Assembly (NCBI GenBank): GCA_001664505.1
Contig: CP011806.1
Location: 4,292,177 to 4,356,176 of the forward strand
Source: Acidobacteria bacterium Mor1
GTDB taxonomy: Bacteria > Acidobacteriota > Polarisedimenticolia > Polarisedimenticolales > Polarisedimenticolaceae
Reading direction: 5' to 3'
DNA: 64,000 nt
Positions 58,592 to 64,000 of this stretch are shown piece by piece (positions within the stretch are counted from its first letter, which is position 1; every line of letters begins with the position of its first letter). A program made the position numbers and the translations under genes. The notes beneath the pieces are model-generated. The model had not been told where the DNA came from. It did not search any database and worked only from the letters and a program-made list of their open reading frames with translations.

Positions 58592-59365
58592 CTACTCCCC
58601 GCCGGAGGGCCCGAACAGCTTGGCGATCGCCTTGACCGGCACCTGGGTCTGGTCGGAGATCTCCTGAAACGAGGGCTCGCGACCGAGATCTTTTTCGAGC
58701 TCGGTAGCGGCCTTCTGCACCTTGCGCATTTTCTCGACCAGGTGCACCGGAATACGAATGGTCCGGGACTTGTCGGCGATGGCACGGGTCATGGCCTGCT
58801 TGATCCACCAGAAGGCGTAGGTCGAGAACTTGTAGCCGCGGGCGTACTCGAACTTCTCCACCGCTTTCATCAGGCCGATGTTGCCCTCCTGCACCAGGTC
58901 CAGGTAGGGGAGGCCCTGGTTGCAGAACTTCTTGGCTACGTGAGCGACAAGGCGCAGGTTGGCCTCGATCATGCCGTCGCGGTTGCGGTCCAGGCGGCGC
59001 TTGGCGTCGGCCAGTTTCTTGAACGCGGGGTTCTTACGCAGATCGGGGTTTTGCTTGACGTAGCTGCGCACGCGCTCGTGACAGCTTTCGATCTGCTGCA
59101 TCGACCACATCTTCTTGGAGCGGGCGGAAGGGTAGTCCCCGACCAGCACCTGGTGGCGGCAGTCGGCCGGCAGCTTGGCCGCGGCCTTCGCGTAATCCTT
59201 GCGGGCCTCCTCGAGGGCGCTCGCCAACTCGACCTCGGTTTCCCGGTCGAGCAGGGGGGTGGCGCCGAGCTCACGCAGGTACACCCGCGTCAGGTCAGCG
59301 TCGGGCGGCATGCGCTCGGCTTCATGGTTCGTGTCGGGGTCCTCGAGGCGGATTTGTTTACTCAT
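58592..59365 (-). CDS. Sigma-70 family factor lacking region 4
   Basis: 257 aa from ATG 59365; a longer frame has no support. Region 1.2 (DLTRVYLRELGATPLLDRETEVELA) is followed by a Lys/Arg-rich insert, region 2 (ANLRLVAHVAKKFCNQGLPYLDLVQEG, then IGLMKAVEKFEYARGYKFSTYAFWWIKQAMTRAI, the core-binding and -10 part) and region 3 (IRIPVHLVEKMRKVQKA, REPSFQEISDQTQVPVKAIAKL). It ends four residues later at FGPSGGE with no helix-turn-helix region 4, which contacts the -35 box. The next gene starts 4 bp after its stop, so there is no hidden frameshifted region 4. It may use extended -10 promoters or act with a partner. Confidence 0.85.
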   Translation of the reverse strand: MSKQIRLEDPDTNHEAERMPPDADLTRVYLRELGATPLLDRETEVELASALEEARKDYAKAAAKLPADCRHQVLVGDYPSARSKKMWSMQQIESCHERVRSYVKQNPDLRKNPAFKKLADAKRRLDRNRDGMIEANLRLVAHVAKKFCNQGLPYLDLVQEGNIGLMKAVEKFEYARGYKFSTYAFWWIKQAMTRAIADKSRTIRIPVHLVEKMRKVQKAATELEKDLGREPSFQEISDQTQVPVKAIAKLFGPSGGE

Positions 59366-59493
59366 GCCCCTTTCTATACGCAGGATTCGGGCCGGGTGTT
59401 TTTCCCCGGAATACGACGTTTTTCCCAGGCATCTGTCCTCTGGCGGCGACAAATTGCCGCGCTGGGCGGCCGAATGCGCCAATTTGGCGCATG

Positions 59494-62400
59494 TCAGCGC
59501 TTCTTGTCTTTCTTGCCCCCGTGGCCGCGGAAGTTCCTCGTGCGTCCGTCGTCGGATGCGGGAACCGTGCTCCCGCCTCCCGGACCCATGACCCCTCCCG
59601 GACCCGAGACCTGCGTCCAGACGAAGTCCCGAATGACTCCGTCGTCCTGGGAGTTGGTTCCGTTGCCGGGGGTGTGGGTTCTGTTGCTGCGCGAGGAGTT
59701 GTAGTCGCCGCCCTCTGCCGGTGCACGGCCGCGGGTGCCGCCGAAGATGTAGATCACGTCGTGGCCGCCACCACCTCCGAGCCCGGCGGCGGGTGTGTGG
59801 GTTCTGTTGCTTCGCGAGGAGTTGTAGTCGCCCCCTTCTCCCGGTGCCCGAACCTCGGTGCCGCCGAAGATGTAGATGACGTCATGCCCGCCGCCCCCTC
59901 CCGGCGCAGCGTTCGGGGTGTGGGTTCTATTGCTCCGTGACGAGTTGTAGTCGCCGCCCTCTGCCGGTGCACGGCCGCGGGTGCCGCCGAAGATGTAGAT
60001 CACGTCATGTCCGCCGCCACCTCCCGGCGCGGCATTCGGCGTGTGGGTTCTGTTGCTGCGCGAGGAGTTGTAGTCGCCGCCCTCCCCCGGCGCACGGCCG
60101 CGGGTGCCGCCGAAGATGTAGATCACGTCGCGGTGGCTGCCGCCTCCCGGTCCGGCGAGGGGGGTGTGGGTCCGGTTGCTTCGCGAGGAGTTGTAGTCGC
60201 CCCCTTCTCCCGGCGCACGCCCCCGGGTACCGCCGAAGACGTAGATGACGTCATGTTCGCCGCCGCCTCCCGGCGCAGCGAGGGGGGTGTGGGTTCTATT
60301 GCTCCGTGACGAGTTGTAGTCACCCCCTTCCGCCCGCCCGCGGCTCTTGGGGACCCAGGGGTGAGGGTTGGACATCCCGTAGGTCGTGCTGTGCCCCAAC
60401 GTATCGGAACCCTGGCGTGAGGTATGCCGGCCCGCGGACGGGTCGAAATATCCACCTCCGGTGCGATAGAGCCGTGTATCCGCGTCCCAGCGCATGCCGC
60501 CGAACAGATAGACGTTGCCCCGGCTACCTGGCCCGCCGATCGGGAGTCCGAAGTCGTCGTAGTCGTAGGACTCAACGGCAGCACCGGTTCCATCGGTAAG
60601 CGAACGAACGCTCTCATTGAAGTCGACGTGGTACCAGAGATCGTCGAGCGCCTGGTCGCCGTTCAGGTCCACCTCTTCCCGCATCTGAAGCAGACCGTCC
60701 GGACCGCCGACGTAGCTGACCTGCGGGATGCCCTGTCCATCCTGTTCTTCGATGACGGTCTGCCCGGACCAGTAGTAGCGCCGGGTCGTTCCGCCGCCGC
60801 TCGCCTCGATCCGGCGGCCCAGGGCGTCATAGCGGTAGCTGAAGGTGCGGCCGGGCACCGTGACCTCGATCATCTGGTCGCGGTAGTCGTAGACGATTCC
60901 TGTCCGATCGTCCGCCGACAGGGTCGCTCCCTTGCCGTCGTAGGTGCGGGAGCCGCGAGGGGTCGTGGTGTACTGGTTGCACTGCCGGTCCGCAGGCGTC
61001 GGTTGAGCCGGATCCATGGTGTACGTGCCGTCCTCGCTGCCGCCGGTCACTGTGGTGCGGTTTCCCGCACCGTCGTAGACGTAGGTGACTGTCTCGACGA
61101 GCGGGCCCGGATCGTTTCGTTCGCTCTCGGTCATGCGGTAGAGCGAGTCGTAGCTGTAGCGGGTGAACCGCGCGGCGTTCAGGTTGTCGCGAAATTCCTC
61201 CAGGGTGTCCGCCGGGCTCCAGGTCGTGCCCAGGTCCAGCCAGGGGATGCCGGCAGCCTCGTGAACGGTGCGCGTCGTGCGCCCGAGCGCGTCATGCTCA
61301 TAGCTGCTGTCGGTGCCGTTGGCCCGGGAGATGCGCTCGACCCGGTCCGGTCCGATGTAGAAAAAGCTCGCCAGGCTGTTCCCCTCGGACATTCCGTTGA
61401 CCCGGTTCAGCGCGTCGTATTGATAGTCGATGGTCCGTCCCGACGGGTAGCGTCGCTGTAGTTCGTTGCCGGCGCCGTCGAAGCTGCTCTCGGTCGTCCG
61501 GCCCGGGCCGCCGGCGACGCTCAAGGTCTCGCGAAGCACGTTCCCCATCGAGTCGTAGTCGAGGGTCACGCTGGAATCGTCGTCGTCGGCGACCCGTAGC
61601 CGGGACAGGCCGTCGTAGTCGTAGGTCTCGGTGGTGGTACCGCCGACACCTGCAGCGGGAACGACCTGAACGCCGGTCACCCGGTCCAGGTCGTCATGAT
61701 CGTAGGAGATCACCGTGCCGTTGGCGTCGGTCAAGGTGGTCACCCGCTGATGCACGTCGTACACGCGACTGGTGGAGGTCCCGTCGGCGTAGCTCGTGGA
61801 GGTCGGCCGGTCGAGGGCGTCGTAGGCATACTGGGTTATGTTTCCGTTGCCGTCGGTCATCGACGACAGCCGGTCGTTGTCGTCCCACTCGTAGTTGATG
61901 ATCACGGTGCCGCTCGGGTTGCCGCTGCCGGTGCCGTCGTCGGTAAGTTCGTGAATCGTCTGCAGCGGACGATCTGCGCCGTCGTACAGCGTGCGCGTCA
62001 CGTTTCCGAGGGAGTCGACGGTCAGCGTTCGCAGGTCCTGGGAGTCATGCCCGTAGGTCCATTGCCGGCCCAGGTTGTCGGTCGTCCCATCGTGGCGATT
62101 GAGAGCGTCGTAGGTGTAGGTCGTGGTGAAGACCTGGTTGGCCAGGCCGAGGTCGGACAGGTCGGTCCGCGTGACCTGCCGCAGGTTGGAGCGGTCGTCG
62201 TAGGCGAAGGTCAAGGTGTTCCCGCCTGCATCGGCCCGCGAGAGCAGCCGCCGGACTCCGTCGTAGGTCATGTCCGTCGAGTTGCCGCGGTCGTCGGTCA
62301 CCCTCAGCGGCCGGTCGTCGGCGTCGTAGAACACCTGGATCGTGCCGGATCCGTCGAGGATCGGCTGCCCCGTACCGATGTCGAAATGGTCGGTGTCCGT

Positions 62401-64000
62401 CTGGATCGGACGGTCGACCTCGTCGTAGCTGATCGAGACCTCCGCCAGGCGCGTCGTGCCCTGTCCGGAACCCTGGAGCGCTTCCCCTTGCACCCGTAAG
62501 CGGGTCTTCTTGCCGTTGGCGTTGTAGTTGTAGGTCTCGACGTTCCCCATGGCGTCGGTGCGTTGAGTCGGGCGGTCGTACCCGTCGTAGGCCCAGGTCG
62601 TGTCATGGGATCCCGAAGGGTCCTCGAGGCCGGATCGGATCGCCGCCAGTTCGCCGTTGGCGGTGTAGTCGAGCTGGACGCTCGCCTGGTCGGCGCTACC
62701 GGAGGCCCGTGTTTCCACGAACAGCAGATCTCTCTCGTCGTACTGGCGAGTCACGTAATTGTCCGGCTGGTTGCCGTTGGTGGATTCTCCAGAGTCGGCC
62801 CGGGCCACGTTGCCGTTGGGGTCGTAGGCGTAGGTCCGTTGGATGCACTCACCGCCCGCCGCCGTTTCGATCTGATCCTCAACGACACGATCGAGCTCGT
62901 CGTAGCGGTAGGCGCGGCTGAGGTAGGCGTTCGCCCGCGGGGTCTGACTCTCGTCTTTGTTCTCCTGGTCGACCCGGATGAGGCGGTTCGCCCGGTCTTG
63001 CCAGAAGTACCTGATATGCAGTTGTGGCGAGGGGGAGACCGAACGGACCATCTGATCCAGCTCGTTGTACGTGTGCTGGGAGAGGTTCCCCCGGGGGTCA
63101 GTCAGGTCGGTCATGTTCCCCGCAGTGTCGTACCCGAACGAGGTGCTGAGGGCGGTCCCCGGGGCATCGATGACGATCTGCGCCAGGTAGCCCTCCTCGG
63201 GGCCCGTTGTGAAGTAGTCGAAGGTGTCGACGCGACCCGCCGGGGTGGTCACTTGGGTCACCTGGCCGAACGCGTTGTAGACGTTGACCTGCTCGATCAC
63301 CTGTTGGCCACCACCCAGGGTGCCGCTGACTACCGTGGGGCGGCGCAGTACGGTGGGGTTTCCGTTGGGGTCATGGGTGTAGCTGGTCACGAAACCGCGT
63401 CCGTCGGTGTATGTCGAGGCGAAGCGATCGAGGAACGGCGCGGCTACTGCCGTGGCGGGGCGGGCCGGCGATTCGAACAGCGTTTCGAGGCTGGGTACTC
63501 TTCGCTGGGAGAAGCCGGTGGTGTAAGTCCAGGACTCCTGGATCGTCGCCTGATCTCCGCCGAGCGCGCCGGGGCTCCGGGTGCGCTGCAGGAGATCCGC
63601 CCGCTGCAGCGGATCGGCGTTTGCCTCGTCGTAGACCAGCAGGGTCGACGATCGGTTGGGCAGGTCGATTCGGGTGGTCATGCCGCCGGCGTTGTAAGCG
63701 TAGGTCGTGTCATAGGAGGGCGGGTCGCCGGCTCGCAAGGGAGATACGGCCTGGTTCTGCAGGGTGTCGCTGGGCGCTGCCGGGTCCGGAGCCCGCCCGG
63801 TGAAGTGGCGCTCCCGGAGAAGCTGCGCCGCACCGTCGAAGTCGTAGCGCGACACGTTGCCGGAGCGATCGTTGACCACCGTGGTGCTTGCGATCTGCGG
63901 TAGCGACGGATCCGGCGGGAGGATCGGATAGGTGTACGCCAACACCTCGCCGAGATGGATCTGATAGGCGATGCGGTCGAATCGGCCGTCTCCCGGGTTC
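59494..64000 (-). CDS. RHS-repeat protein with 41-residue tandem repeat C terminus (5' partial)
   Basis: The frame is open to the window edge, so the N terminus is missing; about 1501 residues are visible. Most of it consists of YD/RHS repeats (YDALNRVNGM, YDYDGLSRLRVADD, YDSLYRMTESE) that build a hollow beta shell. The RHS-associated core follows: YLFGGMRWDADTRLYRTGGGY and YFDPSAGR near residues equivalent to 60520-60400. In place of a recognisable toxin domain, the C terminus has five full copies and one partial copy of a 41-residue unit (GGDYNSSRSNRTHTP...DVIYIFGGTRGRAP), then a Gly-rich tail ending in GKKDKKR. No immunity-like gene is seen downstream. Probably a secreted or surface polymorphic protein. 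Confidence 0.88.
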   Translation of the reverse strand, partial: NPGDGRFDRIAYQIHLGEVLAYTYPILPPDPSLPQIASTTVVNDRSGNVSRYDFDGAAQLLRERHFTGRAPDPAAPSDTLQNQAVSPLRAGDPPSYDTTYAYNAGGMTTRIDLPNRSSTLLVYDEANADPLQRADLLQRTRSPGALGGDQATIQESWTYTTGFSQRRVPSLETLFESPARPATAVAAPFLDRFASTYTDGRGFVTSYTHDPNGNPTVLRRPTVVSGTLGGGQQVIEQVNVYNAFGQVTQVTTPAGRVDTFDYFTTGPEEGYLAQIVIDAPGTALSTSFGYDTAGNMTDLTDPRGNLSQHTYNELDQMVRSVSPSPQLHIRYFWQDRANRLIRVDQENKDESQTPRANAYLSRAYRYDELDRVVEDQIETAAGGECIQRTYAYDPNGNVARADSGESTNGNQPDNYVTRQYDERDLLFVETRASGSADQASVQLDYTANGELAAIRSGLEDPSGSHDTTWAYDGYDRPTQRTDAMGNVETYNYNANGKKTRLRVQGEALQGSGQGTTRLAEVSISYDEVDRPIQTDTDHFDIGTGQPILDGSGTIQVFYDADDRPLRVTDDRGNSTDMTYDGVRRLLSRADAGGNTLTFAYDDRSNLRQVTRTDLSDLGLANQVFTTTYTYDALNRHDGTTDNLGRQWTYGHDSQDLRTLTVDSLGNVTRTLYDGADRPLQTIHELTDDGTGSGNPSGTVIINYEWDDNDRLSSMTDGNGNITQYAYDALDRPTSTSYADGTSTSRVYDVHQRVTTLTDANGTVISYDHDDLDRVTGVQVVPAAGVGGTTTETYDYDGLSRLRVADDDDSSVTLDYDSMGNVLRETLSVAGGPGRTTESSFDGAGNELQRRYPSGRTIDYQYDALNRVNGMSEGNSLASFFYIGPDRVERISRANGTDSSYEHDALGRTTRTVHEAAGIPWLDLGTTWSPADTLEEFRDNLNAARFTRYSYDSLYRMTESERNDPGPLVETVTYVYDGAGNRTTVTGGSEDGTYTMDPAQPTPADRQCNQYTTTPRGSRTYDGKGATLSADDRTGIVYDYRDQMIEVTVPGRTFSYRYDALGRRIEASGGGTTRRYYWSGQTVIEEQDGQGIPQVSYVGGPDGLLQMREEVDLNGDQALDDLWYHVDFNESVRSLTDGTGAAVESYDYDDFGLPIGGPGSRGNVYLFGGMRWDADTRLYRTGGGYFDPSAGRHTSRQGSDTLGHSTTYGMSNPHPWVPKSRGRAEGGDYNSSRSNRTHTPLAAPGGGGEHDVIYVFGGTRGRAPGEGGDYNSSRSNRTHTPLAGPGGGSHRDVIYIFGGTRGRAPGEGGDYNSSRSNRTHTPNAAPGGGGGHDVIYIFGGTRGRAPAEGGDYNSSRSNRTHTPNAAPGGGGGHDVIYIFGGTEVRAPGEGGDYNSSRSNRTHTPAAGLGGGGGHDVIYIFGGTRGRAPAEGGDYNSSRSNRTHTPGNGTNSQDDGVIRDFVWTQVSGPGGVMGPGGGSTVPASDDGRTRNFRGHGGKKDKKR
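59668..60327 (-). repeat. 123-bp tandem repeat array in the RHS gene
   Basis: Exact 123-bp spacing of GTTGTAGTC on the + strand at 59698, 59821, 59944, 60067, 60190 and 60313. In the minus-strand gene, units are 60327-60205, 60204-60082, 60081-59959, 59958-59836, 59835-59713 and a partial one, 59712-59668. Copies differ at scattered bases, so the array is young but not freshly expanded. The unit is a multiple of three, so copy-number change keeps the frame. Confidence 0.95.

What the first reader, a model, noticed from the sequence alone, without database searches (positions are those of the whole stretch)
59668..60327. 123-bp coding tandem repeat in place of an RHS toxin tip
RHS proteins normally carry a variable toxin after the core. 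Here the core is followed by five full and one partial 41-residue repeats (NSSRSNRTHTP, DVIYIFGGTRGRAP) and a basic tail, with no immunity gene downstream. The repeat could be a new surface display or filament-forming unit, or a worn toxin region expanded by recombination.
Basis: partly seen in the sequence, partly recalled or inferred. Interest (0 to 1): 0.6.

Follow-up and report, generated by a model that had tools for sequence, protein, structure and literature searches.

The report
Repeat-tailed, probably uncleaved RHS shell protein
A large exported bacterial shell protein of a type that normally ends in a self-released toxin has lost the residues that cut the toxin free, and ends instead in a selectively maintained array of five and a half 41-residue repeats that is unlike any known domain; its function is not yet known.

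Summary
Window 59668-60330 (minus strand) encodes five 41-residue units plus a sixth 16-residue block, in frame, at the end of a ~2,100-aa RHS/YD-repeat protein. No immunity gene follows; a sigma-70-like gene does. The copies are old and under purifying selection: 44 of 65 substitutions are at third codon positions, and there are 15 amino-acid changes against 43 expected. This argues against a worn-out toxin. The unit has no homologue in 396 genomes of the phylum, plasmids, phages, viral contigs, GTDB genome contigs, the PDB or NCBIfam; Pfam gives only a sub-threshold Kelch hit. Both aspartates of the RHS C-terminal autoprotease are replaced (D to Q, D to P), so the tail is predicted to stay attached, as in teneurins. 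The nearest relative (same order) has the same N-terminal architecture and a degenerate core, but a short tail and its own internal array of LCCL-like motifs. A paralogue ends in a 43%-Trp tail, and another class member in a phage-baseplate OB domain. Best reading: a Sec-exported, non-cleaving YD-shell protein whose toxin slot is taken by a beta-rich surface or binding repeat. Filament formation is untested; structure models of the array are low-confidence. New variant of a known kind.

The parts
59494..64000 (-). In-window part of the RHS/YD-repeat gene; it continues past the window to a likely ATG at contig 4357972 or 4357990 (protein of about 2,100 aa)
60208..60330 (-). Repeat unit 1: EGGDYNSSRSNRTHTPLAAPGGGGEHDVIYVFGGTRGRAPG
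60085..60207 (-). Repeat unit 2
59962..60084 (-). Repeat unit 3
59839..59961 (-). Repeat unit 4
59716..59838 (-). Repeat unit 5
59668..59715 (-). Partial unit 6: only the 16-aa block EGGDYNSSRSNRTHTP
59497..59667 (-). Unique 57-aa C-terminal tail ending GGKKDKKR (net basic)
60331..60516 (-). Degenerate RHS-associated core end (NVYLFGGMRW...GRHTSRQG...NPHPWVPKSRGRA), below the TIGR03696 cut-off
60412..60414 (-). Gln codon at the position of the first catalytic Asp of the RHS autoprotease (GRHTSRQG for GRFxxxDPxG)
60349..60351 (-). Pro codon at the position of the second catalytic Asp (PHPWVPKSRG for PxxxxDPxG[LWF])

Best explanation
The gene encodes a Sec-exported YD/RHS shell protein: signal peptide-like N-terminus, acidic DFDGDG motif, Ig-like domain, DUF6531, about 13 scored RHS repeats and a core. 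In this lineage it has stopped being a releasable polymorphic toxin. The two aspartates that cut the C-terminus free are gone, so the C-terminal segment most likely stays covalently attached to the shell, as the C-terminus does in teneurins. That segment is an array of 41-residue units, each with two conserved blocks (EGGDYNSSRSNRTHTP and DVIYIFGGTRGRAP) joined by a variable Gly-rich linker. The array was duplicated and reshuffled by recombination and kept by selection on the protein. Its most likely role is an exposed, beta-rich repetitive binding or structural element rather than an enzyme. Shown: the array, its frame, its constraint, the loss of the catalytic residues, the absence of an immunity gene and the lack of known homologues. 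Inferred: export from the N-terminus, lack of cleavage, exposure of the tail, and a binding or structural role.
For: Constraint: pairwise dN 0.05-0.13 against dS 0.34-1.13; substitutions by codon position 8/13/44 and 15 amino-acid changes against a null mean of 43 (0 of 5000 as low). The coding frame is the only one of six that combines few changes with no stops. Catalytic Asp loss is scored against the consensus PxxxxDPxG[W/L/F] and the Asp dyad that is required for RhsA cleavage and killing (PMC8765631; also PMC8636562). The examined RHS proteins of the phylum whose core end was covered keep the first Asp except five, all in this class, and those five carry unusual tails: this array, a Trp tail, a short tail, an OB domain, and an alpha-helical segment. 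Asp loss needs at least two events on the YD-region tree. The G007 relative has the same N-terminus-to-core architecture. The next gene downstream is sigma-70-like. No toxin or other domain hit in the array.
Against: No homologue of the unit exists to test its function, and one genome per species means no strain comparison. dS rests on 41 codons per copy, so single values are rough. Both AlphaFold models are poor over the array (pLDDT 47 and about 35), and no fold match is significant. The protein could be a toxin of an unknown, repetitive kind released by another protease. Exposure is inferred from known YD shells; in Rhs and Tc toxins the C-terminus sits inside the shell.
Confidence: 0.5

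Rival explanations
1. The array is the remnant of a former toxin domain or junk sequence, amplified by slippage and not selected.
For: Tandem arrays do arise by slippage and unequal recombination, and the array shows mosaic higher-order structure. The immunity gene is missing. The core is degenerate.
Against: Amino-acid changes are about a third of the neutral expectation, with 44 of 65 substitutions in third positions; no stops or frameshifts; one 16-aa block is identical six times despite nucleotide divergence.
Confidence: 0.13
2. The array is an unrecognised effector or binding cargo that is still delivered, for example membrane-active or nucleic-acid-binding, released by a host protease instead of the autoprotease.
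For: It occupies the toxin position and the 57-aa tail is basic. A paralogue in the same genome has a Trp-rich tail in the same position, which could be membrane-active. Bacterial teneurin-like proteins can carry membrane-active tails (PMC13018210).
Against: No immunity gene next door, whereas almost all teneurin-like toxin genes have one (PMC13018210). The catalytic residues needed for killing in RhsA are absent. A Gly/Ser/Asn/Arg repeat is unlike known toxin domains.
Confidence: 0.2
3. The units are shortened Kelch motifs that form a beta-propeller or related beta-repeat fold.
For: Sub-threshold Kelch_1 hit to the array (17.2 bits, cut-off 20.1, E 0.0036, two stretches). hhalign against genuine Kelch repeats of the same genome: probability 76% over 12 residues, HDVIYVFGGTRG to NNMIYVIGGQIG. 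The genome has many real Kelch proteins.
Against: Only the strand and Gly-Gly signature matches; the Kelch second half (YDP...W) is absent; the score is below the gathering cut-off. The Foldseek hits of the AlphaFold model are mostly solenoid-type folds, at E above 1, and no propeller is among them.
Confidence: 0.1
4. The units are duplicated and diverged copies of the end of this protein's own RHS core (a rival about origin; it is compatible with the best explanation of function).
For: Local alignment GGGGGHDVIYIFGGTRGRAPGE----GGDYNSSRSNRTHT to GGPGSRGNVYLFGGMRWDADTRLYRTGGGYFDPSAGR-HT scores 50; 0 of 344 other windows of the protein reach it (maximum 37), and shuffled units reach it with p=0.004.
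Against: The match was noticed first and tested afterwards; a profile of the five units does not hit the core even at E 10; other RHS proteins' ends score only 23-34.
Confidence: 0.2

Closest known systems
Sec-exported RHS/YD polymorphic toxins (bacterial teneurin-like proteins, WapA-type)
   Same: Signal-peptide-like N-terminus, adhesion-type domains (Ig-like), DUF6531, YD repeats and an RHS core region with a variable C-terminus
   Different: Catalytic Asp dyad lost, core below the family cut-off, no toxin domain, no immunity gene, repeat array at the C-terminus
Metazoan teneurins
   Same: Works like: a YD shell whose C-terminal plug is not autocleaved, so that the C-terminal domain stays attached (PMC8765631)
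   Different: No ABD/Tox-GHH domain; no NHL propeller was found; bacterial; cleavage not tested by experiment
T6SS Rhs effectors (RhsA, Rhs1, Tse5)
   Same: YD shell and core end motif in recognisable register
   Different: No PAAR or prePAAR N-terminus found; autoprotease residues absent; no toxin or immunity pair
Kelch repeat
   Same: Hydrophobic strand followed by Gly-Gly (IYIFGG)
   Different: Only about 12 of 46 positions match; no YDP...W half; below the Pfam cut-off
G007 relative (locus L063, same order)
   Same: Same N-terminus, domain order and degenerate core; nearest in the YD-region tree (support 84/86)
   Different: No 41-aa array; short tail; its own in-frame array of LCCL-like motifs inside the YD region

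Membership tests
RHS/YD-repeat protein | Multiple YD (RHS) repeats above the family cut-off | tested here: met
   PF05593 E 9e-56, 13 stretches, DUF6531 E 2e-9
RHS/YD-repeat protein | RHS-associated core domain (TIGR03696) above cut-off 32.5 bits | tested here: not met
   14.9 bits on the in-window frame, 21.6 bits in the genome scan; recognisable but degenerate
Polymorphic RHS toxin | PxxxxDPxG[LWF] cleavage motif with Asp dyad | tested here: not met
   GRHTSRQG and PHPWVPKSRG in place of GRFxxxDPxG and PxxxxDPxG
Polymorphic RHS toxin | Recognisable C-terminal toxin domain | tested here: not met
   No Pfam or NCBIfam toxin match
Polymorphic RHS toxin | Immunity gene immediately downstream | tested here: not met
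   Sigma-70-like gene downstream
Teneurin-like uncleaved YD protein | Absence of C-terminal autocleavage | not testable with these tools
   Predicted from residue loss only
Teneurin-like uncleaved YD protein | NHL propeller and FN-plug in the superfold | tested here: not met
   No NHL domain among Pfam matches to E 0.1; divergent versions could be missed
Kelch repeat | Score above the Pfam gathering cut-off | tested here: not met
   17.2 against 20.1 bits
RTX nonapeptide repeat | Consecutive GGxGxDxUx nonapeptides | tested here: not met
   At most one GGGGHDVIY per 41 residues, and no Pfam match at E 10
Functional amyloid or filament former | Fibre formation | not testable with these tools
   Models are low-confidence; FapC appears among non-significant fold hits (E 3.6)

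The most novel reading that the evidence does not exclude
In this bacterial class, YD-shell proteins have repeatedly lost the toxin-release protease and turned the toxin slot into a site where new low-complexity or repeat tails evolve (41-aa array, 43%-Trp tail, baseplate OB domain): a bacterial parallel to the teneurins' path from toxin to attached receptor or adhesin.
Probability: 0.3. Interest if true: 0.65.

Novelty: new variant of a known kind. Interest (0 to 1): 0.42.

Why it matters
Teneurins are thought to descend from a bacterial YD-shell toxin that stopped releasing its tip. A bacterial lineage in which the release protease was lost at least twice and the tip was replaced by selected repeats would let that transition be tested in bacteria. 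It would also add a non-toxin class of RHS C-termini that surveys built on toxin domains and immunity genes would overlook.

Tried and rejected
Homologue searches with the unit: own genome (only this gene), 60 relatives and 396 phylum genomes (weak Gly-rich hits only), plasmids, viral contigs (12), phages, PDB sequences (E 0.19 at best). The single GTDB contig hit, L030, is a chance APGEGGDYNS match in what looks like an apolipoprotein N-acyltransferase (the enzyme name is my reading of the sequence). RTX was rejected (no consecutive nonapeptides). The PADLOC mad6 hit (17.8 bits over 20 residues in the PVRWMAPE region) was treated as spurious. The AlphaFold model of the array is all-beta with up to four strands per unit, but at pLDDT 47 and with Foldseek E above 1 I give it no weight, and repeats are prone to modelling as solenoids (general knowledge). 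Derivation from the own core: suggestive pairwise, not confirmed by profile.

Full report
1. What is there. The array lies at window 59668-60330 on the minus strand, period 123 bp, no indels. It is the end of one open frame of 2,172 codons that runs out of the window. Six copies of EGGDYNSSRSNRTHTP and five of DVIY[IV]FGGT..RAP alternate at exact 41-residue spacing, joined by a variable Gly-rich linker, and a unique 57-residue basic tail follows. The genome is a single contig, so the array is not at an assembly break; copy number could not be checked against reads.

2. Is it selected? Between the five full units there are 65 departures from consensus, 44 of them at third positions, giving 15 amino-acid changes where random placement gives a mean of 43 and never fewer than 31 in 5000 trials. 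62% of the random sets contain a stop, while the real one has none. Pairwise dN is 0.05-0.13 and dS 0.34-1.13. The other frames have 23 or more changes and carry stops. The protein sequence of the repeat is therefore maintained, and a decayed toxin is unlikely. Block A copies are most alike at a lag of three units (mean 3.0 nt) against one (6.2) or two (7.0) units, and block B does not follow the same pattern, as expected from repeated unequal recombination. GC at third positions is 0.79 in the array and 0.85 in the rest of the gene, so the array does not look recently imported.

3. The host protein. Pfam gives 13 RHS repeat stretches, DUF6531, a weak Ig-like match and little else. The N-terminus reads as a signal peptide (RAALRCTALLWALAAGTWAGAG), which is my reading; no predictor was available. 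TIGR03696 is found only below its cut-off. In Rhs effectors two aspartates in GRFxxxDPxG and PxxxxDPxG[WLF] cut off the toxin, and changing either one abolishes cleavage and killing (PMC8765631). Here the two positions, 21 residues apart, read Q (GRHTSRQG) and P (PHPWVPKSRG). The tail is thus predicted to stay attached, as in teneurins, where the same region is an uncleaved plug (PMC8765631).

4. Relatives. Three RHS proteins of this genome have an intact core and an ordinary tip; three have a degenerate core: this one, L061 and L062. The class holds 41 genomes, and six (this one included) have a close core relative at E 1e-15. In relatives across the phylum whose core end was covered, the first Asp is kept. 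It is lost in L004 (this gene), L061, L062, L063 and L065. Their tails are the array, a 296-aa tail with 127 Trp, an alpha-helical segment, a short tail and a Phage_base_V OB domain. The tail types were judged by eye except the OB domain (PF04717, E 5.5e-15). The YD-region tree groups L004 with L063 (84/86) and requires at least two changes of the label. L063 of genome G007 matches the window protein along its whole length, including the N-terminal DFDGDG and Ig regions, except for the 41-aa array and for its own insert, in which YTGDSSICTAAR recurs; Pfam reads that insert as LCCL pieces (42.4 bits, five stretches).

5. What it is not. No toxin domain; no neighbouring immunity gene, whereas such a gene follows almost all bacterial teneurin-like toxins (PMC13018210); not RTX; Kelch-like only in the IYIFGG strand. 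AlphaFold gives a regular all-beta arrangement with pLDDT 47 and pTM 0.47, and Foldseek finds nothing significant. The structure is therefore unknown.

6. Mechanism. Shown: array, frame, constraint, loss of the Asp dyad, no immunity gene, no homologue. Inferred: export, absence of cleavage, tail attached and exposed, and a binding or structural role. The rival that it is an unrecognised cargo cannot be excluded, and the Trp-rich tail of the paralogue makes that rival more interesting for L061 than for this protein.

7. Novelty. RHS proteins, teneurin-like non-cleavage and coding tandem repeats are each known. I found no paper describing an RHS core followed by such an array, in a limited search of an open-access library. 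I rate it a new variant of a known kind.

Noticed in passing
L061:2266-3153, minus strand (genome G000, contig C1, about 1869765-1870652): A paralogous RHS protein with a degenerate core ends in a 296-aa tail that is 43% Trp (127 W, 51 G). The sense frame is favoured because the antisense reading would need Pro encoded mostly by CCA in a GC-rich genome. No homologue in 100 relatives.
   Followed up: partly
L063:6329-6727 (genome G007): The same-order relative carries an in-frame array of LCCL-like motifs (YTGDSSICTAAR...HALGRDGGDSVIDPAG) inserted in its YD region. A genome scan for LCCL found nothing in that genome, but the control search rang nowhere either, so absence elsewhere is not shown.
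   Followed up: partly
L065:8501-10639 (genome G016): A class-level relative has a degenerate RHS core followed by a Phage_base_V/T6SS spike OB domain (PF04717) and a weak gp19 tail-tube match: an RHS shell fused to an injection-machine part at its C-terminus.
   Followed up: no
L004:6978-7061 (outside the window, same gene): Near the N-terminus a 17-aa motif GPVRWMAPE[AS]I occurs twice, with a weak match to the tyrosine kinase P+1 loop (PF07714 E 0.045).
   Followed up: no
58595-59482: The downstream sigma-70-like gene has regions 1.2 and 2 and only half of region 3, and no region 4 was matched: a shortened sigma factor.
   Followed up: no
60331-60516 versus 59716-60330: The repeat unit resembles the end of its own RHS core (VYLFGGMR...GGGYFDPSAGRHT); pairwise p=0.004, but no profile hit.
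   Followed up: yes
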